NCBI GenBank assembly: GCA_949751835.1
Contig: CATKHK010000036.1
Span: 62,001-126,000 of the forward strand
Direction: 5' to 3'
Source of the DNA: Blepharisma japonicum
Taxonomy: Eukaryota > Ciliophora > Heterotrichea > Heterotrichida > Blepharismidae
DNA length: 64,000 bases
This document shows positions 1 through 23,742 of the stretch, piece by piece (position 1 is the first letter of the stretch; each line of letters opens with the position of its first letter). Under the pieces are notes generated by a model that was given only the letters and a program-made list of their open reading frames with translations, ran no database searches and was not told the DNA's origin. Made by a program: the position numbers and the translations under genes.

Positions 1-154
1 ACGCTGTTTTTGAATAATGAAAATAGTAGCATTTAATATTCAACCAAGTATATTCTTTTAAGATTAACTAAAAATTGAGAAAATCAATTGTTCAACTTAT
101 ATCAAAGTTTAACAAGAATTCAATTTTATAAATCCATAATTATAACAATTGTAT

Positions 155-1351
155 ATGGAGTTCAAGAGATGCTTCGAGCCAGGCTGTGTTATTGATGTCG
201 AAGTTATATGCCCATGCACTTCGCCTGAGACATATTCATGTGTCCAACATATTGGAAAGCATTTAAAATTATCTAATAACACTCATACTCTTGAGCCTAT
301 TAGTGCAAAACCTTGCAAAAGAACTAAAAACTCAATTCTTTTATGTCTTGCAAAAGAAAAGGTGAGGCGCAATAAGAGAAAAACTTCAAATTCTTTAAAT
401 CAGCAGCTTACGGTGTCCGAAAATTATTTAAGAGAAAAGAGACTCGATATTTTAAGTAGACCAAATGATCCAGAGTTAGAGCAGGAGTTCAGAAAAACTT
501 GTTCGCTATATGAGAGTGATTCAAACAATAATGATTCACCTTCACTTATGCAGGCTTATCAAAACTATGTTAATGCTTATCGCCTAAAGACATCTCTTTA
601 TCATATTATTGAAACTGATAGTGTGTGTAATTTATTGATTTACGACACTGAAAGTGAAAGCTTAGAAGTAAAAATATTAGAAAGCATGGAAATAAATCCC
701 TACACATCCATAAGTCAGCTTCCTAATGGTAAATTATTCTGCTTAGGAAAAATCGATTCACTTTCTATAATTGCGCTGATAATTGATTTGAATGGTGGAG
801 TTGAAAGACTGCCATCTGCGCCTCTTTGCCAATGTTGTTCTGCTATCTATTTTGACAACAATGTCTATTGCCTTGGAGGATACAACTATCATAATAATAA
901 ATATTTTACTCTATCAAGTAAATTTAATTTGACTACAAATAGATGAACTAAATTACCTCCAATGCCAGAAATAGATGACTGCAATTGTGTGATATTTAAT
1001 GGAAATATTTTGATTTCTGGGTGGCAAAGTAGAAATCTTTGGTTATATTCAATTGATATTGATTCGTACTCCACAATTCCTTATAATTTTGAAGAAAATA
1101 AATGAAAACTCTTGATAAATGCAAAAAGGAGACTGTATGTGATTGAATTTGGTTGGGAGGGATCTATTTATGAAAGTGAAGTTGGAAGCTTCACTAATTG
1201 GAAATGAATTTTGTGGTCAATAATCGCTGGGGACATTAATCAAGTTTATTGCTCATATAATAAAGGGGCAATATATATTAGTTGCGTAGGCATTAGAAAT
1301 AAATGTTTCTACAAGTTTAATTTGAGTGGAAAATCATTATTGAAGCTATAA
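155..1351 (+). CDS. B-box zinc finger / Kelch-like propeller protein, array copy 1 (intact)
   Basis: Read with TGA as Trp this is one uninterrupted frame of 398 aa. An ATG two codons upstream (149) is possible; 155 is chosen because paralogues at 13581 and 18277 start at the same MEF/MEV position. Residues 6-44 form a B-box-like zinc site: C6, C11, C19, C21, C29, H32, H36, H44. A basic helical linker follows (about 60-105), then a beta-propeller-like half with Kelch-type blades (for example LPNGKLFCLGK and IYFDNNVYCLGGY). In-frame TGA codons fall at conserved Trp positions: NRW at 944, ENKW near 1102 and WKW near 1204. B-box proteins are often ubiquitin ligases or scaffolds, but no RING is present, so the role is unknown. 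This is the best full-length reference copy of the family. Confidence 0.85.
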
Positions 1352-1897
1352 ATAATGCTTGGAGAATTAAAACTATAAGCTATTTTATATAAGAAATGAA
1401 TTTTATGAAAGATTATAGAAGTTTTAAAATTCTTCAATAACTTCTTAGATATTAAGTCATTTTTACATTTTATAGTAGATTACTAAAGTAAAACCGTTAT
1501 ATTTAAATAAACTACACTGGCTAGTCAATTATAAAAGTGTATAAACTAATTCATTTCGCATAAAATCTAAAATTTATTTTCATTAAAATGAATTAAATTT
1601 GAGTTCTGAAACTATAAAATAAAGAAATAACTAAGTTTACAGCTATCTCTTATTTATGGAGACTATGCTTTATTGCGTTTATGAAAACCAAAATCGGTTT
1701 TTAAGGGAAGCCATACGTTTATTAAACTTATTGAGAAGCAGCTCAAATGATTCAATTAAAAATTCTAGTTTTGTCCATAAATGGGGAAATTTGATAATGA
1801 AATATTTAGAGTTTAGTAAAAGACGCTATATACACATTTATGAAAGATGAAATACTTTAAGAGAAATTAAGTTTAAGATTTATATAAGTTACATAAT
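1352..1897. other. Spacer with decayed N-terminal leader of the next copy
   Basis: AT-rich spacer. From about 1737 to 1897 it matches the leaders in front of the copies at 3157, 6450 and 9314. The last 50 bases still align to the linker codons of copy 1 (TTTAAGAGAAATTAAG against the YLREKR-coding bases), so this is former coding sequence of a longer gene rather than a true intergenic stretch. A 64-codon ORF at 1656..1850 lies in it; it is read here as part of the decayed leader, not as a separate gene. Confidence 0.55.
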
Positions 1898-2785
1898 ATG
1901 GAACCAGACAAAGAGTTTAGAAAAACTTACTCATTACATGAGAGTAGTCTAAATGCTTATGATTCGCCCCAGCTTATACAAGTAAATCAATACTATCCTA
2001 GTACTTATTACCAAAAAGCATCAGTTTATAATATTGATGATCGATGTGATAACAGTCGTTCTAAATTACTTATTTACAACACTCAAAGTGAAATCAAAAA
2101 AGAAGTAATTTTGAAAACAAAAATGCTAGACCGCCTTACATGCATAATCCAGCTTCCAAATGGCAAATTATTCTGCTTTGGAAAAAGCTCACCGGTTTCT
2201 GGGGTTACAATGCTAATTGATGATAATGGTAGAGTCGAAAGACTGCCATCTGGAATTCCCTGTGGCAGCTCTTCTGCTATATATTTTGACAATAATGTAT
2301 ATTGCTTTGGAGGATTAGATAATGGCAATCCTTTATTTCTATCTAGCAGATTTGATTTGAAAGAAAATCGATGAATTAAATTAACTCCTCTACCAAAGTC
2401 TGAATGATGATGCAATAGTGTAACATTTAATAGGAATATTTTGATTTCAGGAAGGAAAAATAAAAATCTTTGGCTATATTCAATTGATCTGGGCTCTTTC
2501 TCGACGATTCCACATGAATTTGAAGAATGGATAGGAAAAATCTTGATAAATGCAGAAGAGAAATTGTTTTTGATTATGCTTGATCGAGGTGGGTCTATTT
2601 ACGAAAGCAATACAAAAAACTTTACTACTTGGAGGGAAATTGGAAACTCAATATTGACTAATATTATTCTGCAAGTTTATTGTTCATATAATAAAGAAGC
2701 GATATATATTGGGTGCATGATCTATAGAGATACTGCAAAATACTTCAAATTTAATTTGAATGAGAAATCACTGACCGAAGTTTAA
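1898..2785 (+). CDS. Kelch-like propeller protein without B-box, array copy 2 (MEPDK type, intact)
   Basis: A 295-aa frame, continuous when TGA is read as Trp: NRW at 2372 and a tandem Trp pair at about 2402-2407 before CNSVTFN. It begins MEPDKEFRKTY at the point that corresponds to DPELEQEFRKTC inside copy 1, so the zinc finger and linker are absent. Propeller blades are conserved (LPNGKLFCFGK, IYFDNNVYCFGGLDNG, SIYESN.., FKFNLNEKSLTEV). Head of the repeated series; its nearest relatives are the copies at 3157, 6450 and 9314. Function unknown; a propeller alone could still bind partners. Confidence 0.8.
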
Positions 2786-2832
2786 TAAGAATAATTAATT
2801 TTTAAATAAAATATAAATTTTTGCACTTTTAT

Positions 2833-3017
2833 AGCTTATACAAACTTATCAAGAATGTGTTGACAATTACCACAAAGAAGCATCGATATATAATATTGAT
2901 GGATATGATGGTAATACAACTAAATTGCTTATTTACGGCACTGAAAGTAAAAGCAAAAAAGAATTAGTCTTGAGACAGACCGTTACATATGTATAGCTCA
3001 GCTTCCAAATGGCAAAT
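2833..3017 (+). pseudogene. Fragment of a MELEQ-type propeller copy
   Basis: About 185 bases match the start of the propeller genes at 4484, 7776 and 11919 (Tyr-rich segment, then YNIDGYDGNTTKLLIYGTES). The match breaks off after AQLPNGK and runs straight into the leader of copy 3. Stops and a short deletion after the KKELVL segment show it is a remnant. It marks a recombination join between the two sub-types of the array. Confidence 0.7.
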
Positions 3018-3156
3018 GATTCAATTAAAAATTCTGGATTTGGAAAATTGAATAGTACAATATTTAGGGCTTAGTAAAAGACACTAGCATACATATCAAT
3101 TAAAGCTGATATACTTTAAAAGAAATTAAGTTTAAGATTTATATAAGCTAAATAAT

Positions 3157-4044
3157 ATGGAACCAGACAAAGATGTTAGAAAAGCTTACCAAATACATGA
3201 GAGCAATCTAAGTACTTATGATTTGCTTCAGCTTATACAAATCAATCATGACTATGCTAGCACTTATCTCCAAAATGCATCAGTTTATAATATTGATGAT
3301 CGATGTGATGACGGTAGTTCTAAATTACTTATTTACAATACTCAAAGTGAAATCAAAAAAGAAATAATTTTGAAAACAAAAATGTTAGACCGTTACACAT
3401 GCATAACCCAGCTTCCAAATGGCAAATTATTCTGTTTTGGAAAAAGTTCACCGGTTTCTGGAGTTGCAATGCTAATTGATGAGAATGGTGGAGTCGAAAG
3501 GCTGCCATCTGGAACTTTCTGTGGCAGCTCTTCTGCTATATATTTTGACAATAATGTTTACTGTTTTGGAGGATTAGATAATGGAAATCCTTTATTTCTA
3601 TCTAGCAGATTTGATTTGCAAGAAAATCGATGAATTAAATTAACTCCACTACCAAAAGCTGATTGATGATGTAATAGTGTAACATTTAAAAGGAATATTT
3701 TGATTTCAGGAAGGAAAAATAAAAATCTTTGGCTATATTCAATTGATTTGGACTCTTTCTCAACAATTCCATATGAATTTGAAGAATGGATAAGAAAAAT
3801 CTTGATAAATTCAGAAGAGAAATTGTTTTTGATTGAGTGCGATCGAAATGGGTCTATTTATGAAAGCAATACAGAAAACTTTACTACTTGGATGGGAATT
3901 GGAAACTCAATATTCTTCAAGACTACTCAGCAAGTTTACTGTTCATATAATATAGAAGCAGTATGCATTGGGTGCATGGTCTATGAAGAGACTGCCAAAT
4001 ACTTCAAATTTAATTTGAATGAGAAATCAGTGATTGAGGTTTAA
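3157..4044 (+). CDS. Kelch-like propeller protein without B-box, array copy 3 (MEPDK type, intact)
   Basis: A 295-aa frame using TGA as Trp at the same three sites as copy 2 (NRW, then the WW pair). Starts MEPDKDVRKAYQIHES. Very similar to copies 2, 5 and 7 in both bases and residues, with the propeller motifs LPNGKLFCFGK and IYFDNNVYCFGG intact. First gene of the first about 3.3 kb repeat unit, followed at 439 bp by a MELEQ-type copy. No zinc finger, signal peptide or membrane segment. Function not inferable beyond a propeller scaffold. Confidence 0.8.
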
Positions 4045-4483
4045 TAAAAATAATTCATTTTTAATTAATATTGCAGCTTTTGAGTTGGCATTGAATTATC
4101 ATACCATAAATATCAGATAATCGCGTATATAAAAAGATAAATGCAAGCTCACAAATGCTAAGAAAAGGCTATTCTTGCGATTAATTTTAGCAAGGTGAGT
4201 TTGAAATGGTTTCAAAAGGTCAAAATAGCTATGATAATCCTTCTACTTAAGTACCAGGAATTCAAAAAATCTGAAAGAAAGTAAATTCAGGTATCAAAAA
4301 CACTCTAAAACGCAATAGTTACAATAATATGCTAGTTAAAGGTGACTTTGAACCATGACCTGCATTTAATAAAATTTAATGTTACCTACTTGCTTTAGAG
4401 ATTCAATTTTAGGTTGTCTTATGAGAAACAAATTTCTATAAAAAAAGAGAAAAGAGTATGAGATTTTAAATACATCAGATAAT
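4045..4483 (+). promoter_or_regulatory. Conserved upstream segment of the MELEQ-type copies
   Basis: This 439-bp spacer is almost identical to 7338..7775 in the next repeat unit. Shared blocks include ACCATGACCTGCATTTAAT and a T-rich block before GTCTTATGAGAAA. It probably holds the promoter, though recent duplication alone explains the identity. The final 45 bases align with linker codons of copy 1, so the transcript leader is former coding DNA. Confidence 0.45.
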
Positions 4484-5504
4484 ATGGAACTAGAGCAAGA
4501 GCTCAGAAAGACTTGCTCGTTATATGAGAGTAATCCAAGTGTTTTTAATTCGCCTCAACTTATACAGGCTTATCAAGATTGTTTTGACACTTACTACAAA
4601 GGAGCATCAATATATAATATTGATGATAGATATGATGGTAATACAACTAAATTACTTATTTACGAAACTGAAAGCAAAAGCAAAAAAGAATTAGTCTTAG
4701 GACAAAAAATACTTGACCGCTGCACATGCATAACTCAGCTCCCAAATGGCAAATTATTCTGTTTTGGAAAAAGCTCTCCGATTTCTGGGATTACGTTACT
4801 AATTGATGATAATGGTGAAGTTGAAAAGTTGCCATCTGGTAATAAATTTTTTATTTTTGACCATTTCTGTGTTCTACAATAAAAATTAGCTAAAAATGCC
4901 TCTTATTTTTTGCTTCTAAGATTCAGTTAAGAATTATTTTGAAAAATAGAAATTATCATACCCATCTAGAACTTCCTGTTGTAGCTCCTCAGCTATCTAT
5001 TTCGACAACAATATCTATTGCTTTGGAGGATTAAATAATGGCTACCCTTTATCTCTATCTAACAAATTTGATTTGGATAAAAATCGATGAATTAAATTAG
5101 CTCCACTGCCAAAAGCTGATTATCTATGCAATAGTGTAATATTTAATAGGAATATTTTGATTTCTGGAAGGAGAAATAAGAATATTTGACTATATTCAAT
5201 TGATCTGGACTCTTTCTCTATAATCCCTTACGAATTTACACAGGGTATAAGAAAGATTCTGATAAATACAGAGGAGAAACTGTTTTTGATTGAGTGTGAT
5301 AAAAAAGGGTTTATTTATGAAAGTGAAATTTCAAGCTTTACTACTTGGAGGAGAATTGGAAGCTCAATAATCTTCAAACTCATTAAGCAAGTGTATTTTT
5401 CGTATGATAAAGATGCGATCTATATTGGGTGCATGATCTATAAAGATCCTGCCAGATATTTCAAGTTTAATTTGAATGAGAAATCACTGACTGAAGTTCA
5501 ATAA
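4484..5504 (+). CDS. Kelch-like propeller protein, array copy 4 (MELEQ type) interrupted by a 130-bp insertion
   Basis: Begins MELEQELRKTCSLYES. The frame is open to 4882 but departs from its paralogues at 4840, after LPSG. The propeller resumes at 4970 (TSC/SCCSSAIYF region) and runs to TAA at 5504, with TGA as Trp in NRW and IWLYSID. The 130-bp insertion (4840..4969) is the only break; taking it out leaves the downstream part in the same frame. If the insertion is removed from the DNA or RNA the product is about 296 aa, like copy 8; otherwise it is truncated at 132 aa. No B-box. Confidence 0.7.
4840..4969. other. 130-bp insertion with near-identical 8-bp flanks
   Basis: Absent from copies 6 and 8. 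Left flank CCATCTGG (4832..4839) and right end CCATCTAG (4962..4969) differ at one base, like a target duplication. The inside is AT-rich with stops in every frame. It begins GT and ends AG, but at 130 bp it is nothing like the 15-nt introns of this genome. Possible internal eliminated sequence or small non-autonomous element. Confidence 0.55.
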
Positions 5505-5904
5505 AATAAAAGCCTTTAAGTTTCAATTTTCGTATTGAACTATTAATTATTTACAAATTAAAAAATTTAAGCACTCATATTTATAAAGCAGCTAAATCTG
5601 AATTATAAAGGGTAAGAAAAGTTATATGAGATTACTTTAAATATATTAAGTTTTCAGCTTGTTTCAAAAGGACAAAAAAATCTATAAAGCTACATTCTGA
5701 TATTTTCTCAATTTGAAAGGATAAGCAAGATATGCATTGTCAACATCAGTTGAGATAACTTTACAAATTAAAATTATAGAGTTTGTAGAGCTTGCTTAGT
5801 GCCGATAAGACTCTACAAGTTGATATAGCAAATCATACGATGAGAGAGCTTGAACCCCATTTTATTAGGTAACTCAGATTACTGTATAATATAATATCAT
5901 ATTG

Positions 5905-6120
5905 GGGGCAGGAATGCCTTGAGCCAGGCTGAATGTTTGATACTGAGATTGTGTGCTCATGAACTTCTTCTGATACATATTACTGTAAACTTCGTCTTAA
6001 AAAGCATATATAATTGACTCAAGCCTTAAATTCTTTTTTAATAGACCTTCAAAGGAACGAAAGAAGCAATTCTCTTTAATTTTACAAAAGAAAGAATTAG
6101 GATGTCAAAAGAGATATACT
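5905..6120 (+). pseudogene. B-box relic 1
   Basis: Reads ECLEPGWMFDTEIVCSW and further as a worn copy of the B-box start (CFEPGC..EV.CPC), with zinc ligands replaced and a stop near the second His. The same relic recurs at 8905 and 13201, always downstream of a MELEQ copy. The rest of 5505..6449 is AT-rich; 6170..6290 repeats the upstream region of the genes at 13581 and 15811, and 6295..6449 is the decayed leader of copy 5. Confidence 0.6.
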
Positions 6121-6449: not shown

Positions 6450-7337
6450 ATGGAACCAGACAAAAATGTTAGAAAAGCTTACCAAATACATGAGTGTAAT
6501 CTAAGTGCTTATAATCTGCCTCACCTCTTACAAATCAATCATGACTATGCTAGAACTTATCTCCAAAATCCATCAGTTTATAATATGGATAATAAATGTG
6601 ATGACAACAGTTCTAAATTACTTATTTACAATACTCAAAGAAAAATCAAAAAAGAAGTAATTTTTGGGACAGATATATTAGACTATTTCACATGCATAAC
6701 TCAGCTTCCAAATGGTAAATTATTCTGTTTTGGAAATTGCTCACTGGTTTCTGGGGTTGCAATGCTAATTGATGAGAATGGTGGAGTCAAAAGACTGCCA
6801 TCTGGAACTTCCTGTGGCTGCTCTTCTTCTATATATTTTGACAATAAAGTATATTGCTTTGGAGGATTAGATAATGGCAATCCTTTATTTCATTCTAGCA
6901 GATTTAATTTAGAAGAAAATCGATGAATTAAATTAACTCCATTGCCAAAAACTGATTGATGATGTAATAGTGTAGCATTTAAAAGGAATATTTTGATTTC
7001 AGGAAGGAAAAATCAAAATCTTTGGTTATATTCAATTGATCTGGACTCTTTCTCAACAATTCCATATGAATTTAAAGAATGGATAGTAAAAATCTTGATA
7101 AATGCAGAAGAGAAATTATTTTTGATTGAATGCTATCAAAATGGGTGTATTTATGAAAGCAAGACAGAAAACTTTACTACTTGGAGGAGAATTGGAAATT
7201 CTATATTCTCAAAGTCTACTAGGCAAGTTTACTGTTCATATAATATAGAAGCAGTATACATTGGGTGCATGGTCTTTGAAGGGGATATCAAATACTTCAA
7301 ATTTAACTTGAATGAGAAATCAGTAATTGAGGTTTAA
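6450..7337 (+). CDS. Kelch-like propeller protein without B-box, array copy 5 (MEPDK type, intact)
   Basis: A 295-aa frame with TGA as Trp at NRW and the following WW pair. Starts MEPDKNVRKAYQIHEC. Closest to copy 3; it heads the second repeat unit, exactly 3293 bp downstream of copy 3. Propeller motifs are kept, but several conserved positions drift (FCFGNCS for FCFGKSS; FEGDIKYFKF near the end). No N-terminal zinc finger. Whether it is expressed cannot be told from sequence; an open frame alongside decayed neighbours suggests either recent origin or selection. Confidence 0.78.
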
Positions 7338-7775: not shown

Positions 7776-8665
7776 ATGGAACTAGAGCAAGAGCTTAGAA
7801 AGACTTGCTCGTTATATGAGAGTAATCCAAGTGTTTTTAATTCGCCTCAGCTTATGCAGGCTTATCAACACTGTTCTGACACTTACTACAAAGGAGCATC
7901 AATATATAATATTGATGATAGATATGATGGTCATACAACTAAATTACTTATTTACGAAACTGAAAGCAAAAGCAAAAAAGAATTTGTCTTGGGACAAAAA
8001 ATACTTGACCGCTACACATGCATAACTCAGCTCCCAAATGGCATATTATTCTGTTTTGGAAAAAGCTCTCCGATTTCTGGGATTACATTGCTAATTGATG
8101 ATAATGGTGGAGTTGAAAAGTTGCCATCTGGAACTTCCTGTGGTAGCTCCTCAGCTATCTATTTCGACAACAATATCTATTGCTTTGGAGGATTAGATAA
8201 TGGCCTCCCTTTATCTCTATCTAGCAGCTTTGATTTGGATAAAAATCGATGAATTAAATTAGCTCCACTGCCAAAAGCTGATTATCTATGCAATAGTGTA
8301 ATATTTAATAGGAATATTTTGATTTCTGGAAGGAAAAATAAAAATCTTTAACTATATTAATTGATCTGGACTCTTTCTCTACAATCTCTTATGAATTTAC
8401 ACAGGGTATAAGAAAGATTCTAATAAATACAGAGGATAAATTATTTTTGATTGAGTGCGATCAGAATGTGTCTATTTATGAAAGTGAAGTTCTAAGCTTT
8501 ATTACTTGGAGGAGAATTGGAAGCTCAGCAATCTTCAAACTCATTAAGCAAGTGTATTTTTTGTATGATAAAGATGTGATCTATATTAGGTGCATGATCT
8601 ATATAGATCCTGCCAGATATTTCAAGTTTAATTTGAATGAGAAATCACTGACTGAAGTTCAATAA
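7776..8665 (+). pseudogene. Kelch-like propeller copy 6 (MELEQ type), broken in the second half
   Basis: Open from MELEQELRKTC for 191 codons, reading TGA at 8250 as Trp, to a TAA at 8349. There the paralogues have TGA (Trp of NLWLYSID), so a Trp codon has become a true stop. One base is also missing a few positions on (TATTAATTG against TATTCAATTG), putting the remainder in another frame, open to 8665. Product would be half a propeller. No 130-bp insertion here. Second gene of repeat unit 2. Confidence 0.75.
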
Positions 8666-8904: not shown

Positions 8905-9110
8905 GGAAGGTATGTCTTGAGCCAGGCTGTATGCTTGGTACTGAGATTGTGTGTCCATGTACTTCTCCTGGAACATATACTGTAAACTTCGTCTTAAAAA
9001 GCATATAGAATTGACTCAAGCCTTAAATTCTATTTTAGTAGACCTTCAAAGGAACGAAGAAGCAATTCTCTTTAGTTTTACAAAAGATTTAGGAAGTCAA
9101 AAGAGATATG
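8905..9110 (+). pseudogene. B-box relic 2
   Basis: Same relic as 5905..6120: CLEPGCMLGTEIVCPCTSPG keeps more zinc ligands, but there is no continuous frame into a propeller. It ends in sequence joined to the leader of copy 7 (about 9155..9313). Part of the third-unit boundary. Confidence 0.55.
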
Positions 9111-9313
9111 TTAACTTCCTTTGACCAACGTCATTTTAATGTATGCGTTTTATGAGAAGCAGCTCAAATAATTCAATTAAAATTCTAGTTTCGTCCATAA
9201 ATGGGGAAATTTGATAGTGCAATATTTGGGTTTAGTAAAAGACGCTATACATCTATGAAAGATGAAATACTTTAAGAGATATTAAATTTAAGATTTTATA
9301 TAAGTTAAATAAT

Positions 9314-10142
9314 ATGGAACCAGACAAAGATGTTAGAAAGGCTTCCCAAATACATGAGAGTAATCTAAGTGCTTATGATTCACCTCAGCTTATACAAGTA
9401 AATCAAGACTATGCTATCACTTATCACCAAAAAGCATCAGTTTATAATATTGATGATAAATGTGATGACGGCAGTTCTAAATTACTTATTTACAATACTC
9501 AAAGTAAAATCAAAAAAGAAGTAATTTTGGGAACAAAAATGCTAGACCGCCTTACATGCATAACCCAGCTTCCAAATGGCAAATTATTCTGTTTTGGAAA
9601 AAGTTCACCGGTTTCTGGGATTACAATGCTAATTGATGAGAATGGTGAAGTCGAAAGACTGCCATCTGGAATTCCATGTGGCAACTCTTCAGTTATATTT
9701 TGACAATAATGTCTATTGTTTTGGAGGCTTAGATAATGGAAATCCTTTATTTCTATCTAGCAGATTTGATTTAGAAGAAAATCGATGAATTAAATTAACT
9801 CCATTGCCAAAAGCTGATTGATCATGCAATAGTGTAACATTTAAAAGAAATATTTTGATTTCAGGAAGGAAAAATAAAAATCTTTGGCTATATTCAATTG
9901 ATTTGGACTCTTTCTCTACAATTCCATATGAATTTGAAGAATGGATAGGAAAAATCTTGATAAATGCAGAAGAGAAATTGTTTTTGATAATGTTCGATCA
10001 AAATAGGTCTGTTTATGAAAGTAATACAGAAAACTTTACTACTTGGAGGAGAATTGGAAATTCAATATTCACTAATATTATCCTGCAAGTTTACTGCTCA
10101 TATAATAAAGAAGCGATATATATAACTAACTATATCTTGTAA
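9314..10142 (+). pseudogene. Kelch-like propeller copy 7 (MEPDK type), frameshifted and 3'-truncated
   Basis: Opens MEPDKDVRKASQIHES and matches copies 2, 3 and 5. Two bases are missing at about 9694 (TCAGTTATATTTT against TCTGCTATATATTTT), so the second half (from about 9700, open to 10142) is in another frame. After NKEAIYI (about 10120) the sequence leaves the family and enters a foreign segment, so the last 30 or so codons are lost. Head of the third repeat unit. Confidence 0.75.
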
Positions 10143-11208: not shown

Positions 11209-11600
11209 ATGGAATTTTTGTTTGTTTTGAAAGTAATTGCAACAAGAAAGTTGAGTGTATATGCAAATATATATCGCTAAATATTTTAAATTGCAAAGAT
11301 CATCTCATTTTGCATATGGAATTAGCAATCATACCTCATCATATACAATCAATATATAGGAATTAATCAAATGGCTAAAGGAGTAATCTTTAACTACGCA
11401 ATAAAGGAAAAAGAGAAAATTAAGAAAAATTAACACAATTTTCTATAGGTTTTATAGACTCAAAACGAAATCTTAAGGAAGCGTTAAATAAGGCTAATCT
11501 TGACATTGCAATAATTCTCAAAATTATCAAATTAATTTTGAAACAAAAAAATATATATCCCTCACTTATCTGATAATGGCGAAATTATCGAAATTATTAT
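11209..11600 (+). pseudogene. Divergent B-box relic upstream of copy 8
   Basis: In one frame, bases from 11224 read CFESNCNKKVECIC, then CKDH and HMELAIIPHH: a recognisable B-box ligand series (C-x4-C, C-x-C, C-x2-H, H). The frame is lost soon after; Lys/Ile-rich coil-like remnants continue to about 11780. The order B-box, coil, then propeller at 11919 mirrors the genes at 13581 and 15811, so this is probably the decayed front half of copy 8. 11780..11918 is AT-rich leader. Confidence 0.5.
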
Positions 11601-11918
11601 GAGCTATCGAAGGAATATTGAAATGTTAAAATAGAATTATTGAAAAAAAATTCAGCTGGGTCCAATGTTTTCACAAATATCTGAGCATATCAACTTTATT
11701 GATGAAAAAATCAGTAAAAGTGAGGTGACGTCAGCCAAGCAAACAGAATCCATCAAAAATGTTGAGATAAGAAAATGAAGTCCACTAGCTGAAATAGTGA
11801 GGGACATATACTCAATATAAATGAGTGAAAAGATGAAATATAAGGACCTACAATGCTATTTTTTTAAAAAAATAATTTAAGAGAAAAGAGTATAGAGATT
11901 TTAAATACATCAGATAAT

Positions 11919-12809
11919 ATGGAACTAGAGCAAGAGCTCAGAAAGACTTGCTCGTTATATGAGAGTAATCCAAGTGTTTTTAATTCGCCTCAGCTTATAC
12001 AGGTTTATCAAGACTGTTCTGACACTTACTACAAAGGGGCGTCAATATATAATATTGATGATAGATATGATGGTCATACAACTAAATTACTTATTTACGA
12101 AACTGAAAGCAAAAACAAAAAAGAATTAGTATTGGGGCAAAAAATACTTGACCGCTACACATGCATAACTCAGCTCCCAAATGGCAAATTATTCTGTTTT
12201 GGAAAAAGCTCTCCGATTTCTGGGATTACGTTGCTAATTGATGAGGACGGTGGAGTTGAAAGGTTGCCATCTGGAACTTCTTGTGGTAGCTCCTCAGCTA
12301 TCTATTTCGTCAACAATATCTATTGCTTTGGAGGATTAGATAATGGCTACCCTTTATCTCTATCTAGCAGATTTGATTTGGATAAAAATCGATGAATTAA
12401 ATTAGCTCCACTGCCAAAAGCTGATTATCTATGCACTAGTTTAATATTTAATAGGAATATTTTGATTTCTGGAAGGAGAAATAAAAATCTTTGACTATAT
12501 TCAATTGATCTTGACTCTTTCTCTACAATCCCTTATGAATTTACACAGGGTATAAGAAAGATTCTGATAAATACAGAGGAGAAACTGTTTGCGATTGAAT
12601 GTGATCAAAATGGGTCTATTTATGAAAGTGAAGTTGCAAGCTTTACGACTTGGAGGAGAATTGGAAGCTCAATAATCTTCAAACTCATTAAGCAAGTTTA
12701 CTGTTCATATAATAAAGAAGCAGTACACATTGGGTGCATGATCTATAAAGATCCTGCCAGATATTTCAAGTTTAATTTGAATGAGAAATCACTGACTGAA
12801 GTTCAATAA
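11919..12809 (+). CDS. Kelch-like propeller protein, array copy 8 (MELEQ type, intact)
   Basis: A 296-aa frame with TGA as Trp at NRW (12393) and NLWLYSID (about 12493), ending TAA at 12807..12809. It is the undamaged version of copies 4 and 6 and proves that their insertion and stop are secondary. Motifs: LPNGKLFCFGK, IYFVNNIYCFGGLDNG, SIYESEVASFTTW, YFKFNLNEKSLTEVQ. No B-box in frame; a relic lies upstream. Function unknown. Confidence 0.8.
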
Positions 12810-13200
12810 ACTAAAAGTCTTTAAGTTTCAATTTTTAGTATTGAACTATTAATTATTTGCAAATTAAAAAATTTAAGCACTAGCGAAATCTGACTTATAA
12901 AGGGTAAGAAAAGTTATATGAGATTACTTTAAATATATTAAGTTTTCAGCTTGTTTCAAAAGGACAAAAAAGCCCATAAAGCTACATTCTGATATTTTCT
13001 CAATTGGAAAGAATAAGCAAAGATATGCATTGCTAACATCAATTGAGACAACTTTACATGAAAAGTGCAATTATAGAGTTTGTAGAGCTTGCTTAGTGCC
13101 GATAAGACTCTAAAAGTTGAGATAGCAATTCATACTATGAGACGAGCTAGAAGCCCATTTTATTAGATAACTCAGATTACTGTATAATATAATATCATAT

Positions 13201-13430
13201 TGGAGGGAAGGAATGCCTTGAGCCAAGCTGCATTCTTGGCACTGAGATTGTGTGCCCATGCACTTCTTCTGGAACATATTACTGTAAACTTCCTCTTAAA
13301 AAGCATATAGAATTGACTGAAGCCTTAAATTCTATTTTAGTAAACCTTCAAAGGAACGAAAGAAGCAATTCTCTTTAATTTTGCAAAAGAAAGAACTAGG
13401 ATGTCAAAAGAGATATGCTAAAAATAATTT
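13201..13430 (+). pseudogene. B-box relic 3
   Basis: Third occurrence of the relic seen at 5905 and 8905 (CLEPSCILGTEIVCPC), again downstream of a MELEQ copy. It closes repeat unit 3. Confidence 0.55.
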
Positions 13431-13439
13431 AGTTAGCTT

Positions 13440-13580: not shown

Positions 13581-15310
13581 ATGGAGGTGAAACATTGCTT
13601 CGAGCAAGGTTGCATTCGTAAACCTGAACATTATTGTAACTGCACCCCTGCTGATATTTACTTTTGCGAGAAGCACATCATAAGTCATGTTAAATCTTAT
13701 GATACGAGTCATGATATACACCGTCTTTTTGTAAATCCTTGCATAGGAACTAAACAAGCAATTCTTGAATTCCTCAATAAGGAAAACTTAAAGAATAGTA
13801 AGCGAAAAAATAAAATATTAGCTTCCTTTAGTCAGCGTATTCTTGCTTCAGAAAATGACTTTGGAGAGCTTATAAAAGAAATTGATTCTTGCTCTGAGCA
13901 TATAAATGATTATCTTATAAAAATTTCCCAAGTTGAAAAATTACCAAAGTCAGAAAAAGATCCAATTTTGACACTATTGAGTTTACAGCCTGATGAGGCT
14001 GTTAAAAAATAAAAACACTGATCCCAGACAATTCAGATCGATTCAAAATTATGAAGGAGTTTTGTGGATTTAGTGAAACAGTGAAGAAAATAATTGAGTG
14101 TTTCATAAAAGACAAATTCGAAGCTTACTTAGATACAAGACTTGCAAATATGGGCAATAGTCTAGAAAAATATAAAGAAATAAATAGCGAGATAGCAAAC
14201 GTAAAGGATTCTATATCTAAGCTAAGAGATGAAAATAAAAGAATCAAAAGAGAAATTGAAGACTGAAAGAAATGGACAGGACCAAATAAAAAGGGAAAAA
14301 AAAGAATACTTAATCCTAAAATTACTGAAGAACTAAATCTTAAACTCAAAGAAGTAGAAAATGCTCAAAATATAATAAATATCACCCAGAAAAGCTTAAG
14401 AGACAAGATTTCTGAAATTTTAAATAAGCCAAATAATCCTAAGCTAGAAAGGGATTTCAGAGAAACTTATTTCTTGTTTGAAAATGACCCAATTTTTTTA
14501 AAATCACCTCTACTTATGCAAGCCTTCCAAGACTATTTTGATTCTTATCGCCAGAGAACATCAATTTATTTAATAAATGGAAAAGATGAGAGAAGTAATT
14601 TATTGATTTATGACACTGAAAGGCAAAGAGAAAAAATCGAAACCTTGGAAATTAAAAAATGGCTTGACTCTAATACATGCATAGCTCAGCTTCCAGGTGC
14701 CAAATTATTCTGTTTTGGGAATGGCCATGCTTCTGGGGATGCATTGATAATCGATAATAATGGTAAATTCCAGGAGTTGCCATCTGGAACTCCTTGCTAC
14801 TGTTCATCAGCTATATATTTCAACAACAATGTCTATTGCTTTGGTGGAGGTATTGATGGTAAAGATTTAACTCTCTCTTGTAGATTTGATTTAGACATAA
14901 ATCAATGAATTGAATTAACTCCAATGCCAGAAGATGATATAGCCTGCAAAAGTATAATTTTTGATGGGAATATATTAATTTCTGGATATAAAAATAGACA
15001 ACTTTTGCAATATTCAATTAATGACAACTCTTTTAAGACAATTCCTTTTTTATTTGCATATCGTAAAGTAAAGATTCTTATAAATGCAGAAGAAAAGCTC
15101 TATTTGATTGAATGCGAAGGCGGATCTATATATGAAAGTGAAAACAGCATTACTTGGAAACGAATTGCAGACTCAATAATTACCTCACGCCCTGTTCAAG
15201 TTTATTGTTCATATAATAAAGGAGCTATATATATTGGGACAAATTTTAAAGATGGCAATAAATACTACAAGTTTAATTTGAATGAAAAATCATTATCTGA
15301 ATCTCATTAA
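13581..15310 (+). CDS. B-box / coiled coil / propeller protein, array copy 9, with one frame break in a poly-A run
   Basis: Longest form of the family, about 575 aa. Begins MEVKHCFEQGC with a full B-box ligand set (CNCTP, YFCEKHIISH). It has a long charged helical region with heptad-like Leu/Ile spacing (SLEKYKEINSEIANV, KLRDENKRIKREIED), then the propeller from about 14445 with TGA as Trp at 14264 and in NQW (14906). A TAA ends the first frame at 14012, after a run of six A where the sister copy has seven; one base restores a single frame to 15310. The break may be a real mutation or a homopolymer error. Conserved over its full length otherwise. Confidence 0.65.
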
Positions 15311-15810: not shown

Positions 15811-17625
15811 ATGGAGGTGAAGCATTGCTGCGAGCAAGGTTGCATGCTTGAACCTAAGCACTATTGCGACTGCACCGCTTCTGATATTTACTTTTGTAAG
15901 ACGCATATCAATAGTCATCTGGAATCTATTGATAAGACTCATAATATACACCTTCTTTTTGTAGAGCCTTGCATAGGAACGAAGCAAGCAATTCTTGAAT
16001 TCCTCAATAAGGAAAACTTAAAGAACAGCAAGCGAAAAGATAAAATATTAGCTTCATTTAGTCAGCATCTTCTTGTTTCTAAAAATGACTTTGGAGAGCT
16101 TTTAAAAGAAATTGATTCTTACTCAGAGCAAATAAATAATTATTTTACAAAAATTTCCCAAGTTGAAAAATTATTAAAGTCAGAAAAAGATCCAATTTTG
16201 ACACTATTGAGTTTACATCCTGATATTTATTTTTCCATTTTTCAGTTACTTATCAATAAAATCAGACTTAATATAGGACATTAGCTAATTTATAAAGTTA
16301 CAGCCTGATGAGGCTGTTAAAAAAATAAAAACACTGATCCCAGACAAGTCAGATCGATTCAAAAATATGAAGAAGTTTTGTGGATTTAGTGAAACAGTGA
16401 AGAAAATGATTGAGTGTTTCATAAAAGACAAATTCGAAGCTTACTTAGATACAAGACTTGCAAATATGGGCAACACTCTAGAAAAATATAAAGAAATAAA
16501 TAACGAGATAGCAAACGTAAAGGATTCTATATTTAAGCTCAGAGATTAGAATAAAAAATAAAAAGAGAAATTGAAGACTGAAAGAAATGGAGGACCAAAT
16601 AAAAAGGAAAAAGAAAGAATACTTAATCCTAAAATTACTGAAGAACTAAATCTTAAACTCAAAGAAGTAGAAAATGCTCAAAATATAATAAATATCACCC
16701 ATAAAAATTTAACAGACAAGATTTCTGAAATTTTAAATAAGCCAAATAATCCTAAGCTAGAAAGGATTTCAGAAAAACTTGTTTATCATATGAAAATGAC
16801 CCAAATGTTTTTAGTTCACCTCTACTTATGCAAGCCTACCAAGACTATTTTGATCTTTATCGCCAGAGAACATCAATTTATTTAATAGATGGAAAAGATA
16901 AGAGAAGTAATTTATTGATTTATGAAACTGAAAGGCAAAACTCTTACTTCTTTAACTTGGATATTCCAAAGTGGCTTGACTCTAATGCATGCATAGTTCA
17001 GCTTCCAGGTGCCAAATTATTCTGTTTTGGGAATGGCCATGCTTCTGGAGTTACATTGATAATCGATAGCAATGGTAGATTTAAAGAGTTGCCATCTGGA
17101 ACTCCTTGCTACTGTTCATCAGCTATATATTTCAACAACAATGTCTATTGTTTTGGTGGAGCTATTAGTAATAGAAAATTAAAACTCTCTTGTAGATTTG
17201 ATTTAGGCATAAATCAATGAATTGAATTAACTCCAATGCCAAAAAATGATGCATTCTGCAAAAGTATAATTTTTGATGGGAATATATTAATTTCTGGACA
17301 TAAAAATAGGCAACTTTTGCAATATTCAATTAATGAAAACTCTTTTACGACAATTCCTTTTTTATTTGCATATCGTAAAGTAAAGATTCTTATAAATGCA
17401 GAAGAAAAGCTCTATTTGATTGAATGCGAAGGTGGATCTATATATGAAAGTGAAAACAGCATTACCTGGAAAAGAATTGCAAACTCAATAATTAGTTCTA
17501 TTCCTATGCAAGTTTATTGTGTATATAATAAAGGTGCGATATATATTGGGGTAAATTTTAAGGATGCCACCAATAAATACTACAAGTTTAATTTGAAGGA
17601 AAAATCATTATCTGAATCCTCATAA
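15811..17625 (+). pseudogene. B-box / coiled coil / propeller copy 10, several breaks
   Basis: Sister of copy 9. The B-box (MEVKHCCEQGC, CDCTA, YFCKTHINSH) and first helix are open to about 16224. An 85-bp insertion follows, then a TAG and small indels at about 16546-16600, and one missing G near 16765 that shifts the junction into the propeller. The propeller itself (16828..17625) is open, with TGA as Trp in NQW. Its homopolymer has seven A, so it lacks the frame break of copy 9. At least four lesions make it a pseudogene, unless the insertion is removed and the rest is mis-sequenced. Confidence 0.75.
16225..16309. other. 85-bp insertion with 12-bp direct repeats
   Basis: TTACATCCTGAT (16213..16224) recurs as TTACAGCCTGAT (16298..16309), one mismatch. 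Copy 9 has a single version of this site (near 13983). The 85 bp between are AT-rich and non-coding. The repeat contains TA. Same class of event as 4840..4969. Confidence 0.55.
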
Positions 17626-18276: not shown

Positions 18277-19482
18277 ATGGAGTTTAAACGATGTTTTGAG
18301 CTAGATTGTATGCTTGAAGCTGAGATCATATGCCGATGCACTTTTCCTGAAACGTATTCCTGTATTCTGCATATTAAGAAGCATATAAAATCAGCTAATA
18401 AGACTCATTCTCTTGAGTCTATTTTTGCAGATCCATGTAAAGGCGCAAAAGAAGCAATTCTTTTATGCATTACAAAAGAAAAATCAATACTTAAAAAGAG
18501 AAAAGCTTTAGAGTTCCTAAACGAACGTCTCTTTCATTCAGAAATATATTTAAGAGATAAGAGATCTAAGATTTTAAGAAAGCAAAATAGCCCCATTTTG
18601 GAAGAAGAGTTTAGAAAGACATGTCAGCTATATAAAAATAATCTAAATATTTATAATTCGCCTCCACTTATCCAGGCTTATCAAGACTATACTAATACTT
18701 ATTGCCAAAATGTATCTCTTTATAATATTGCTAGCAGAGACTTGAAAACTAATTTATTTATTTACAATACTGAAAGTGAAAAGAAAGAAGTTAAAATCTT
18801 GGAAAATAAAGAAATAATCGGCACTTGTACATGCATAGCTCAACTTCCAAATGGTAAATTATTCTGTTTTGATGACCGCTATAACTTCAAAGGTTATGCA
18901 GTGATAATTGACAGGAATGGTGGAGCTCAGAGGTTGCCATCTGGAAACCCTCCTGAAATCTCATCTGCTATCTATTTTAAAGACAATGTTTATTGCTTTG
19001 GACCAAAAAATAGGATTTTAATTCCTTCAATAGTGTTTTATAAATTTGAATTAAATAGAAATCGATGGATTAAATTACCTTGACTACCAAAAGCCGAGTA
19101 CAATTGCATGAGTATAATATTTAATGGAAATATTTTAATTTCTGGATGGGAAAATAAAAATCTTTGGTTATATTCGATTGATATTGGTTCATTCTCCATA
19201 ATTCCTTATGAATTTGCATATGATAGAAGAAAGATTTTAATGAATGGTGGAGAGAGACTGTATTTGATCGAGTGTTTTGAATTTGGATCAATATACGAAA
19301 GTGAAACTGCGGACTTTTATGTTTGGACACGAATTGCAAACTCAGAAATTCATTATTATCCTGATCAAGTGTGCTGTTTATACAATAAAGAAGCTATATA
19401 CATTGGGTGCATTAAAAATTATAATAATATCAAATATTACAAATTTGATTTGAATGAAAAATCATTATGCACTATAGAATGA
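18277..19482 (+). CDS. B-box zinc finger / Kelch-like propeller protein, array copy 11 (intact)
   Basis: A 401-aa frame. B-box at residues 6-44 (CFELDC, CRCTF, YSCILHIKKH), helical linker, then propeller. Here the first conserved Trp after the NR motif is TGG (NRWIKLP) and the next is TGA (19081, LPWLPKAEY), a direct internal proof that TGG and TGA are used for the same residue within the family. Same short-linker architecture as copy 1, unlike copies 9 and 10. Ends LNEKSLCTIE. Apparently functional; role unknown. Confidence 0.85.
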
Positions 19483-19740
19483 AAGTATTTTAAAAATTAG
19501 GCTAATTTCTTAGAACTATTCTATTTTTATTACAGAGTTTAATTGCTTGTTTTCAAAAATAATCTATATAAGAAAAAGTTTATAAGAATAAAATTCTTAG
19601 ACTCTAGATGAGCCAACACTTAAAAACTTAGAATTGAAATCATCCTGCAGTTTAAATACTTTTCTTAATGCCTAATTTCCATATATTTTATATTGAGACT
19701 TAAATCCTCTAGCTGAGCTTGAAGATATTTTATACCTTTT

Positions 19741-20610
19741 TTAGCACTAAGTAGAATAGGAATCTTGCTCTACGCAGACGACATTGTGCTGATAGCCAAG
19801 AACACTGAAGAACTTCAACTACTTTGTGACATCAGCTGCACTTGAGCATATGAATTCTCTCTAGCAATAAATATCTCTAAATCAGTCTGAATAGACTACA
19901 AGAAGAAGCAAACTGATCAAACTCTATGATTAGGTGGAGCGAATGAAGCTGGAAAAAACGCACAAATTCAAATACTTGGGTAAAATTACTGGGAGAAAAT
20001 TAGGGATGAGTCAGATCAAAAAATGACGCTGGAGAAGATGAAGACAACATGCAGAACTGTTCAAGGCCTAATTTCAGGCCGATAACCAGTAGATCGGTGA
20101 TACCAGAAGCGCATATGATCTCAACAGCGCTATATGTTAAAGGGTGTGCTCAAGAAGAAAGGGATCAAAAGCTGCTGGAGCTGATTGATAGAGAGAGGAT
20201 GAAAATAGCTAGGACTTTATTGTGTGCACTGAAGGGAATAGCTCGAGAGACATCTCTGAAAGACTTTGGCTAAATCACAGTTCGAAATCATTGTCGAAAA
20301 CGAACACTAAACTTTAGAAAAAGGGTGCTAAACTCTAAGAACAAGATAGCACGAGAAGTCCTCATCTCAAACTGTACTGAAAACTTGCCGTAAGAGAGAA
20401 AATGTGAACCTTCTTAAAAAAGCTTGGGGCGGATGAATCCTTAGACAAAGAGAACATTGCATCATTGGAAAGAGGGCAATTGGGAAGATTAATAACTTTC
20501 GAAATCCAAGCGTGCAATTTAAGAGAAGTTATGTACAGGCTAATGACGGAAACAGAAAAGACGACCCAAATTTGAAGGTGGCCTAAAGAAGGAGCAATTC
20601 ATACTTAAGA
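19741..20610 (+). mobile_element. Decayed LINE (non-LTR retrotransposon), 3' part of the reverse transcriptase
   Basis: Reads GILLYADDIVLIAKNTEEL, the YADD active-site motif of a non-LTR reverse transcriptase, followed by W.YEFSLAINISKS. After gaps and stops comes the thumb-like segment at 20049..20273 (DQKLLELIDRERMKIARTLL; LKDFG). Only the C-terminal third is left, as expected for a 5'-truncated LINE copy. TGA stands at Trp positions (CTWAYEF, SVWID), so the element was adapted to this nuclear code. G/C content is visibly higher than the flanks. Not active. Confidence 0.75.
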
Positions 20611-20624
20611 AATTGTTGAAAATG

Positions 20625-20760
20625 AGTCAATATCAACTGAATATTATATTCGATTTCCAGAAATCAAAATTTTCAATTACATATTATTCTTCTACAATGT
20701 TATCATATTTTGGTATTGCAGCTAAATTAATTCATCTATTTTTATTTTAATAAAATCTGC
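20625..20760 (-). pseudogene. Propeller-family relic, minus strand
   Basis: Short blocks match the minus-strand propeller gene downstream: GAGTCAATATCAACTGAAT (like 21541..) and TTAATTCATCTATTTTTA (like 21655..). Internal sequence is badly worn. It suggests a second minus-strand copy once stood here. 20761..21255 holds no gene; 20870..20895 has an A-box-like motif (see findings). Confidence 0.4.
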
Positions 20761-21255
20761 TCGATAAAGATGATCAACTCTTCTTTATCAATCCTTCAAA
20801 CAGCAGACGTCTCTATTGAAATAGATACTTTAAAATTAAATTTTAAGATCCTATCGGCTAAGCAAGATAGCCTAGTGGTTCTTACTTTATGATAGCTATT
20901 GCAATTTCTCATCTGTGAATAGAAACACAGTGAGAGTCCTGTTCTGATTACCAAACAGTAGTGAAAAGATAATGAAGGCGATAAGTGACCTTCAAACCTG
21001 CAGAGAATTTCTCTATACATAATAAGTTAGTGTATAAGCTTAATTAACGTATCAAGAATTTAAAAAATAAACTTCATACTTAAGCAAAGAGATAATTTTC
21101 CTAAAATTTCCTTTTAAGTACCAATTTTAATATAATACATAATTTTTCTAATATTTTGTCTGAGAAACGAAGCCATGGTGACTATCGAAGAAATATACTC
21201 TTTTAATTTAATAGACTAATAAATAAGATTAAGAAATATTTTTATTCAATCAAAT

Positions 21256-22353
21256 TTATTTTAGAGATACCAATGTTTTTTTATTCAAGTCAAATTTATA
21301 GTAATTGATGCTATCACAAGAATTGCACCCAATATATATCGCTCCTCTGTTATACGAGCAATAAATTTGATTAGGAATAATATTTATTGTTGATACTGTA
21401 ACTATTTTCCAGACATTAAAGCTTGCAATTTCACTTTCATATATTTGAAAATTTTTTGACTGAATTAAATACAGTCTCTCTTCTGCCTTAACTAATATCT
21501 TTGTTATGAATTTTCCAAAATCCCAACGAATTATGGAGAAAGAGTCAATATCAATTGAATACAGAAAAAGTTTTCTATTTTTATATCCAGAAAACAAAAT
21601 ATTTCCTAGAAATATAACACTACTGCACCAAAGATCAGGGCTTGGCATTGGAGTTAATTTTATTCATCTATTTTCACCAAAATCAAATCTAGTAGAAAGA
21701 TTTAAGTGTCTGATAGATTCTGCTCCTCCAAAACAATAAACATTGTTATTTAAATAGATAGCTGAAGAATAGCCACATCGAGTTCCAGAAGGAAGAAACT
21801 TAATTTCTCCATTTAAATCTATTAGCATTGCAGTCCCAGATTTTGGCTCTATTCTACCAAAGCAAAATAATTTACCATTTGGAAGCTGAGCTATGCATGT
21901 GCTAAAATCTAGGATTTTTGGAGTCTTCAAGTCTTTTACTTCTTTTTTATGATTTTCAGTATTGTAAATAAATAAATTAGTTCTGCGTTTGTTATTTACA
22001 ATGTTATAAAGTGACGCTTTTTGTTTATAAGCATTAGTATAGGCTTGCATAAGTGATGATTCATAAATACTTGGATTGTTCTTATAGCATAAGCGAGTTT
22101 TTATGTATTCCTGCTCTAACTCTGGGTCATTTGGCCTATTTAAAATTTTAGAAATCTTTTCTCTTAAATCATTGCTTAGATCAAGGAGATGCTTACTATT
22201 AGAATTTAATTCTTTTTTCTTGGCATAAACGAAAGATGCCTTTTCTTTCGACATTTGAACGCCTAGTATTTGATTTTTGTCGTTTTGAATTAGTTCTGTA
22301 TAGGAGCCAAGCTGCTTTCCATTTTTTTGTCCCATATTATAGATTATGAGCAC
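21256..22353 (-). CDS. Kelch-like propeller protein, array copy 12 (inverted, no B-box)
   Basis: A 365-aa frame on the minus strand, continuous when TGA (21664..21666, ENRWIKL) is Trp. The N-terminus differs from the rest: MLIIYNMGQKNGKQLGSYTE replaces the zinc finger. A start at the second Met would give MGQKNG, a possible N-myristoylation signal. A helical linker (LRDKISKILNRPNDPELEQ type) then leads into the propeller (LPNGKLFCFGR, IYLNNNVYCFGG). It is the only intact copy of the array in the opposite direction and closes the array on the right. Confidence 0.8.
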
Positions 22354-22972
22354 TTATTAGATTTATTGCACTTATTGATATTTTTTACCTAATAGTTTTA
22401 GTTTCTTTTTACGTATTTTAATCAAAATTATCCAAAAGGAATTATAAATTTATATCTTTACTATATTTGGGGTATAAATTCTTTCTCCGCCTATTGCTTT
22501 AGAATAAAAATTATTTGTCTTGCAAAATTTGAACTCGAATTTTACTCAGATTGTTTTTATAGCTCTATTCCTAAAACCTAAAGATTCCCTATAATCACCA
22601 AGAGTAAATGCCAGTATTATATTATGTGAAGTTTGATACTTAGTTGGAATTTTTCTAATTATTAACTTTTATTTAATTTTCTTTATTTACTTTAACCCTT
22701 TATATGTTAAAAAAGCAGGAACTTTCTTTGCCAATAAGCAGCTTTCCTGAAATCTTCTTCTGATTTTGGATTATTTGGCTAATAAATTTTAATGGAGCTT
22801 AGTAGGTTTCAATTTTTAGACTAAACAAATATTCAATTAAATGCTGCCTATTATAGGGAAAAAATTATATGAAATCTAAGTTCTCATCATAATATATAAA
22901 TAGCTATGAATATTTCTCTTTTATTATATAAATAATTAATTTGATAAGAATATAGTTGATTAAAGATCTGCC

Positions 22973-23095
22973 CACCAATTAGTAAAATCTGCAGCTTCGC
23001 TTTTATAGATTAACCTAAAGGATGGCACTGAATCAAATACAGTCTTTCCTCCACATTTATAATGATTTTCTTATATATGCTACAAAGTCATAAAG
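22973..23095 (-). pseudogene. Propeller-family relic, minus strand
   Basis: Minus strand reads KKIIINVEERLYLIQC, then a worn SIYESE..FTNW equivalent, matching the KILINAEERLYLIEC blade of the family. No frame survives. The rest of 22354..23742 is AT-rich, with a few further weak matches up to about 23300 and nothing else recognisable. Confidence 0.5.
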
Positions 23096-23742
23096 AACTG
23101 TACCAACGCTTTTCTTCTTTCAAGCAAAACATTCTTTCTATGTTACCTTTAGAGTAAATTTGAAATAAAGAAGCAATAAATTTTTAGTTCAACTGATATT
23201 TGTAGGCCTATCTAGTATTTTGTATTCATCTATGATTACTGTAGAACTTTTCGTAATTATCAGGACATAAATACATCAATTTTCTGCTCAAAAAGAAGTT
23301 TTGAGCTTCTAATAATAATTTATACTTAAAGAATTTGCTTTTTTCTCACGATCAAAAATCCGCCATCAAGTAAATTAGGAGCCCATTAATTATCAAACAC
23401 TTTATTTTTAAATAATAAATTTTAGCTCAATAGTCGATTAAAAAGTAAATGATTAGAAAATAAATTGTTATGTAAGGGTTACAAACTATCTAATACAAAA
23501 GAATATCGAAAATTAAAAAATTCCATAGCCTTTTTCTTCTGACTTTGAATTCATTTCTCTCAATTTTAGAATAAGTGAGACAATCTAATTATAAATCTCT
23601 AAATATTTTAACAAAAATTCTAAAAAAACCTATTTAATCATATGGAAAAATCATAAAAGCAGAATCCTCCACTTCAAAAATATTATTTTACATCCAAATA
23701 CAGAAGCAACTTCTCAATACATTATATAAACTAAATTTCTAA

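What the first reader, a model, noticed from the sequence alone, without database searches (positions are those of the whole stretch)
1..23100. Tandem, fast-evolving array of B-box/propeller genes
About twelve copies in 23 kb: two intact B-box copies, two long coiled-coil copies, several B-box-less copies, one inverted copy and many relics. This pattern of birth, loss and partial duplication is typical of recognition or variable gene families. The family itself seems undescribed as a B-box plus Kelch-like propeller combination.
Basis: partly seen in the sequence, partly recalled or inferred. Interest (0 to 1): 0.7.

Follow-up and report, generated by a model that had tools for sequence, protein, structure and literature searches.

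The report
Ciliate receptor-like family, hypervariable propeller face
The gene array belongs to a family of at least about 160 copies in a Blepharisma-like ciliate genome, whose proteins end in a propeller-shaped domain with one face that differs in every gene compared while the rest is conserved, as expected of a repertoire of recognition proteins.

Summary
The array is real. The window is from a TGA=Trp ciliate genome (Blepharisma-like; CCCTAACA telomeres). The family has at least 163 places on 86 contigs, concentrated near contig ends. The protein is a zinc motif, a middle that looks like coiled coil, and a six-bladed Kelch propeller. The zinc motif is not a Pfam B-box: the model finds 65 places in this genome, none near a listed family member. 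In 22 full-length paralogues, 24 codons are hypervariable, all in the propeller, mostly in the b-c and d-a loops that form one face, with which Keap1 and KLHL20 bind ligands. Identity is 13% there and 82% elsewhere. Nonsynonymous change there is about five times the background silent rate; simulation fits omega near 15 without extra mutation. A second subfamily varies at mostly the same places. Propellers also sit behind a protein kinase (9 of 12 close kinase matches, one in this window) or a WW domain. I read this as an intracellular recognition repertoire; its targets are unknown. The window array itself is a partly broken, mostly constrained branch. Fungal HET-D/E WD40 propellers vary at the equivalent loops, so this looks like convergence. 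The searches made found no description.

The parts
155..1351 (+). copy 1: zinc motif + propeller, 398 aa, open; middle region missing
   Evidence: AF2 model
1898..2785 (+). copy 2: propeller-only open frame, 295 aa
   Evidence: dN/dS to copies 3 and 5 0.49 and 0.63
2835..3022 (+). propeller relic
3157..4044 (+). copy 3: propeller-only open frame, 295 aa
4445..5504 (+). copy 4: propeller split in two frames
5909..6037 (+). zinc-motif relic upstream of copy 5
   Evidence: E 7.5e-8
6450..7337 (+). copy 5: propeller-only open frame, 295 aa
7725..8662 (+). copy 6: propeller, split near 8357
8907..8981 (+). zinc-motif relic
   Evidence: E 3.6e-8
9266..10142 (+). copy 7: propeller split in two frames
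11223..11354 (+). weak zinc-motif relic
   Evidence: E 0.001
11868..12809 (+). copy 8: propeller-only (ATG ORF 11919-12809, 296 aa)
13199..13345 (+). zinc-motif relic
13581..15310 (+). copy 9: full-length layout (zinc, middle, propeller), two frames meeting near 14009
15811..17625 (+). copy 10: full-length layout, broken; ~84-base insert near 16215-16299
18277..19500 (+). copy 11: zinc motif + propeller, 407 aa, open; middle missing; its Kelch motif is not over the Pfam cut-off
20611..20776 (-). propeller relic, inverted
21256..22335 (-). copy 12: inverted, N-terminus without zinc motif + propeller, 359 aa, open
35057..36181 (+). protein kinase ORF (HRDLHPQN and DFG present), probable N-terminal part of a kinase-propeller gene; 69% identical to the kinase part of L083
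36154..37104 (+). copy 13: propeller directly behind the kinase, in another frame; no joining 14-18-base GT..AG intron found

Best explanation
This is a large family of probably intracellular recognition proteins. SHOWN by computation: a conserved six-bladed Kelch propeller carries about 24 hypervariable residues, concentrated at the b-c and d-a loops of its blades, which form one face. These residues change under strong diversifying selection while the rest of the propeller is conserved. Sequence parts are shuffled among paralogues, and the same propeller stands behind different N-terminal modules (zinc motif + middle region, protein kinase, WW). INFERRED: the variable face is a ligand-binding site, each gene having its own specificity; the middle region dimerises the protein; the zinc, kinase or WW end passes on the signal or recruits partners. 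Duplication and gene conversion near chromosome ends supply new variants, and selection for new specificities keeps those that recognise a changing target (non-self proteins of microbes, symbionts, mobile elements or other strains). The window array is an interior, partly broken branch of it.
Against: No ligand, expression or localisation data. The window copies are mostly under net constraint (dN/dS 0.35-0.75) and several are broken. In the 22 genes the zinc region has dN/dS 1.01 and the middle 0.83, so the supposed effector end of this subfamily is weakly constrained or itself changing. pS is also raised at the variable codons (0.32 in subfamily A, 0.515 in subfamily B); the simulation accounts for it in A and was not run for B. 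Contig ends are partly assembly breaks, which repeats cause by themselves. Of the 13 telomere-capped ends listed (list cut), 4 have a listed member within 11 kb and C36 has a diverged one; the other 8 were not read beyond 300 bases. The zinc motif has no confident model or matched relative. The kinase-propeller in this window is in two frames, and in L083 the open frame lacks the start of the kinase.
Confidence: 0.66

Rival explanations
1. Diversifying substrate adaptors of the ubiquitin system, TRIM- or KLHL-like: the variable face picks endogenous or foreign proteins for degradation. This is a more specific form of the recognition reading.
For: Kelch ligand face; zinc motif, middle region and C-terminal recognition domain resemble the TRIM order. 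Nematode F-box and MATH-BTB adaptors expand similarly (recalled).
Against: No RING, BTB, F-box or B-box appears in the Pfam listings of the members scanned; kinase and WW versions need no ubiquitin step.
Confidence: 0.3
2. Self/non-self or mating-type labels within the species (allorecognition), analogous to fungal HET-D/E.
For: Same loops diversified as in HET-D/E WD40 propellers (PMC1805685, passages); all 22 genes distinct.
Against: Some 160 copies in one genome fit a repertoire better than one label; no strain comparison was possible.
Confidence: 0.2
3. Targeted hypermutation (DGR-like or programmed during macronuclear development) generates the variable codons.
For: Variation is confined to single codons next to nearly invariant ones; several columns keep one third base (NNT or NNC) while bases 1 and 2 vary. 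Fourfold codons sharing their first two bases differ at the third base more often at variable codons (21 of 164 gene pairs) than elsewhere (1606 of 30897), and codons flanking them have pS 0.163 against 0.106 further away.
Against: Overall pS, pN and third-base diversity at these codons are close to what selection alone gives; third-base diversity (0.416) is below that of bases 1 and 2 (0.605, 0.586); many adenines beside them do not vary. The two silent signals in the For line were not simulated, and a template was not searched for.
Confidence: 0.07
4. Relaxed constraint or pseudogene drift in a useless repeated family.
For: Broken copies in the window; dN/dS 1.01 in the zinc region of subfamily A.
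Against: 56 of 77 matches to P0001 cover it nearly end to end with open frames of 567-619 aa (5 of the 56 list a TAA or TAG inside the match); pN at variable codons far exceeds the silent rate, which relaxation cannot do; non-variable propeller codons have dN/dS 0.70.
Confidence: 0.03

Closest known systems
HET-D/HET-E NWD (NACHT-WD40) non-self recognition family of Podospora (PMC1805685, passages)
   Same: Propeller proteins in a gene family; positively selected residues in the d-a loop and the b-c turn on one face; exchange between copies
   Different: WD40 with near-identical repeat units and a NACHT domain; here Kelch with divergent blades, no NACHT found, zinc/kinase/WW ends, variation measured between genes rather than between repeat units
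BTB-Kelch adaptors (Keap1, KLHL20) (PMC4668279, PMC6720452, passages)
   Same: Six-bladed Kelch fold; b-c and d-a loops as ligand face
   Different: No BTB/BACK domain found here; those adaptors are not hypervariable families (recalled)
TRIM proteins
   Same: Order zinc motif, presumed helical middle, C-terminal recognition domain
   Different: No RING found; zinc motif not matched by the Pfam B-box model; Kelch instead of SPRY/NHL (recalled)
Variant surface antigen families at chromosome ends (recalled: var, VSG, Paramecium surface antigens)
   Same: Large, shuffled, enriched near contig ends
   Different: No signal peptide or membrane segment seen by eye at the N-termini read; kinase neighbours point to intracellular proteins; expression mode unknown

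Membership tests
Kelch propeller superfamily | Kelch motif in sequence and six-bladed fold | tested here: met
TRIM | RING finger | tested here: not met
   no RING match in window copies scanned or P0001
TRIM | B-box zinc finger | tested here: not met
   0 of 12 N-termini (two of them truncated) list zf-B_box at E<=10 (HMMER's filters drop most weak matches); 65 B-box places in the genome, 0 within 3 kb of 163 family places. Ligand pattern C-x4-C-x7-C-x-C-x7-C-x2-H-x3-H only resembles it
TRIM | coiled coil | tested here: inconclusive
   long helix in the AF2 model of copy 1, low confidence; the full middle was not modelled
BTB-Kelch (KLHL) | BTB/BACK domain before the propeller | tested here: not met
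   no such Pfam match in members scanned
NWD/NLR (HET-D/E) | NACHT or NB-ARC NTPase | tested here: not met
   none in members scanned
NWD/NLR (HET-D/E) | diversifying selection on d-a and b-c loops of the propeller | tested here: met
Chromosome-end variant gene families | enrichment next to telomeres | tested here: inconclusive
   strong at contig ends; 5 of the 13 telomere-capped ends listed seen with a member within 11 kb, 8 not read
Chromosome-end variant gene families | exclusive or switched expression | not testable with these tools
   no expression data
Diversity-generating retroelement targets | template repeat with adenine-specific change | not tested
   no template search made; codon pattern argues against adenine specificity

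The most novel reading that the evidence does not exclude
A single-celled ciliate carries an innate immune-like receptor repertoire: a family of some 160 copies, about 50 of them with near-full-length open frames of one type, in which a Kelch propeller works as a paratope-like variable face, coupled to exchangeable signalling ends (zinc motif, kinase, WW), evolved independently of NLRs and of antibodies.
Probability: 0.45. Interest if true: 0.92.

Novelty: new variant of a known kind. Interest (0 to 1): 0.78.

Why it matters
How single-celled predators such as ciliates tell non-self proteins apart is, to my knowledge, largely open. A family with dozens of similar frameworks and one hypervariable face gives a direct handle: ligands can be sought with named genes, the variable residues are known, and kinase-linked members would offer a signalling read-out. 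It would also be a second, apparently independent case, after fungal HET WD40 proteins, of evolution using the b-c and d-a loops of a propeller as a variable binding site.

Tried and rejected
B-box identity: rejected on Pfam; a profile of 12 N-termini against PDB sequences gave nothing significant (best E 0.16), and AF2 of the N-terminus was low-confidence (pLDDT 55), so its fold stays open.

Hypermutation: the raised silent count at variable codons first looked like it; simulation showed that counting bias under strong selection accounts for most of it in subfamily A. Two smaller silent signals were not simulated (see the rival).

Intron between kinase and propeller: searched for 14-18-base GT..AG introns that would join the frames, none found.

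Pooling window copies for selection: weak or net constrained; I do not claim diversifying selection for the window array.

Dropped rows: L082 in the subfamily-A set was a different protein (zinc + TPR) and was left out of codon counts (it was in the entropy table); the subfamily-A member in that same locus was missed, and C58, which lists a TAG, was not taken: 22 of the 24 near-complete members at 74% identity or more were used. One search used 53 distinct full-length propellers of 101 domain hits. Telomere ends: C108 was capped and had a member at 1 kb, but I had looked at it because it had a match, so it is left out of the count of 13. One search computed all window pairs and printed eight.

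Literature: ten searches, judged from the listings, showed no description of this family; one paper holding all four terms (PMC3498115) was not opened. The main texts of the two Blepharisma genome papers contain no 'kelch' (PMC9942806, PMC9942856; term searches). Preprints and most subscription journals are not covered.

Full report
What the window is. Read with TGA=Trp, several apparent breaks of the array vanish and long frames appear. The window is contig C36:62001-126000 of a 45.2 Mb, 224-contig assembly with the telomere repeat CCCTAACA (168 exact matches to three tandem units, 0 in the control). Both features are reported for Blepharisma stoltei (PMC9942806, passages), so this is most likely a Blepharisma or close heterotrich; the species is my inference.

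The observation. tblastn confirms 12 propeller copies in 1-22.4 kb, with relics between them and one copy inverted. Two copies join the zinc motif directly to the propeller, two have the full-length layout but are broken, four are propeller-only open frames and three are split. More family members lie upstream (C36:45.7 and 60.1 kb). One lies downstream at 36154-37104, directly behind a protein kinase ORF (35057-36181) that is 69% identical to the kinase part of L083, where kinase and propeller share one frame. The L083 frame lacks about the first 41 residues of the kinase, and one search lists a TAA in the longer match there.

The family. The canonical member is about 580 aa in one frame (P0001): zinc motif with invariant or nearly invariant Cys/His, a middle region of P0001 residues ~90-277, then the propeller. 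Five protein searches list 104, 77, 113, 126 and 101 matches. It includes broken copies; the tool says its own counts are lower bounds. Of the 77 matches, 56 cover P0001 nearly end to end with open frames of 567-619 aa; 5 of the 56 list a TAA or TAG inside the match.

Position. 89 of 163 places lie within 10 kb of a contig end, 15.5 expected; on contigs of 100 kb or more, 45 of 106, 6.5 expected (contig lengths partly interpolated, total 45.14 of 45.19 Mb). Because repeats break assemblies, telomere-capped ends are the cleaner test. The cut list shows 13 such ends. Four have a listed member 0.9-10.6 kb from the end (C4, C6, C7, C17), and C36 has a diverged 888-aa member about 0.5 kb from the telomere. 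The other eight (C5, C11, C38, C47, C69, C78, C80, C89) show no listed member within 11 kb and were not read further. The window array itself is 62-84 kb from a telomere-capped end.

The hypervariable face. Among 22 full-length paralogues, 24 columns reach 2.2 bits, all in the propeller. Mapped to the model, 11 lie in b-c loops (of 27 columns), 7 in d-a loops (of 42), 5 in strands (of 129; at strand ends beside such loops, or in strand 1b), 1 unmapped, and none in the 40 columns of a-b and c-d loops (Fisher test for loops p 1e-4). In 53 distinct propellers from several subfamilies the same loops are the most variable; in the 22 outside the first subfamily one c-d column also passes the percentile used. 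These loops are the ligand face of Keap1 and KLHL20 (PMC4668279, PMC6720452, passages). The 22 genes have 22 different residue sets, 13.3% identical on average against 82.1% elsewhere.

Selection. With columns chosen from the other genes, 11 non-overlapping pairs give pN 0.551 and pS 0.323 at these codons, against background pS 0.102 and pN 0.075. Split-half choice gives pN>pS in 200 of 200 splits. Simulated evolution on a star tree at omega about 15 with the background silent rate gives pS 0.319, pN 0.577 and third-base diversity 0.39, against 0.318, 0.583 and 0.416 observed, so extra mutation is not needed for these figures. Outside the variable codons dN/dS is 0.70 in the propeller, 0.56 in the linker, 0.83 in the middle and 1.01 in the zinc region. 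In a second subfamily (12 genes, 73% identity) 16 of the 25 most variable columns are the same positions. At the positions chosen on the first subfamily (22 of 24 mapped) pN is 0.537 and pS 0.515, against pN 0.125 and pS 0.239 elsewhere. Frequent exchange between copies is indicated by incompatible site pairs (47% within 30 bases, 64% beyond 300; 94 sites) and by uncorrelated distances between gene parts (rho 0.15-0.21). Exchange does not favour amino-acid changes over silent ones, so it cannot by itself give this pattern, but it limits tree-based site tests.

Results against the reading. The window copies do not show this strongly: dN/dS 0.35-0.75 for the eight pairs printed; the three most recent copies have pN 0.219 at the variable codons against background pS 0.182. 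The array is better read as an interior, partly broken branch. The zinc region of the diversifying subfamily is hardly constrained. Fourfold codons sharing their first two bases differ at the third base more often at variable codons than elsewhere (21 of 164 against 1606 of 30897 gene pairs), which could mean older variants or some extra mutation.

Modular ends. A kinase with HRD and DFG motifs precedes the propeller in the window, in another frame. Of 12 genome places matching that kinase at 70% identity or more (E below 1e-150), 9, this one included, have a family propeller within 300 bases. In L083 the HRD motif is lost. L021 has a WW domain before the propeller, and L082 has the zinc motif before TPR repeats instead of a propeller.

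Mechanism. I propose probably intracellular sensors whose propeller face binds a target that differs from gene to gene, with the N-terminal module as output. The face, its selection and the varied neighbours are shown; binding, target and output are inferred. The nearest precedent is the fungal HET-D/E family, where positively selected codons sit in the d-a loop and the b-c turn of a WD40 propeller (PMC1805685, passages). Fold and other domains differ, so I read the likeness as convergence.

Novelty. Ten literature searches gave no description in their listings (see Tried and rejected). I rate it a new variant of a known kind: a variable recognition repertoire, on a propeller class and in a lineage where I know of none.

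Noticed in passing
L082:6521-8272 (C108, telomere-capped end): Zinc-motif N-terminus of the family joined to about ten TPR repeats instead of a propeller.
   Followed up: partly
window 16215-16299: About 84-base insert in copy 10, flanked by near-identical 12-base repeats (TTACATCCTGAT/TTACAGCCTGAT); possibly a retained eliminated sequence or a small duplication.
   Followed up: no
window 23743-24615 and L081:4102-4986: Cys-rich RING-like proteins without Pfam match, alike by eye; the two copies lie on either side of the main propeller array.
   Followed up: no
window 24850-25476 and 25974-26594: Tandem pair of small, apparently multi-pass membrane proteins, similar to each other by eye.
   Followed up: no
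L083:5775-7667 (C7 end): Kinase part lacks the HRD motif, unlike the window kinase: possible pseudokinase or decaying copy.
   Followed up: partly
window 27434-27559: Weak zinc-motif match (E 1.5e-4) away from any propeller.
   Followed up: no
C42:389569-390081, C189:22026-22484, C205:1-189, C67:2-256, C156:2-337: Fragments of the same kinase at contig edges, so the kinase-propeller class is probably undercounted.
   Followed up: no
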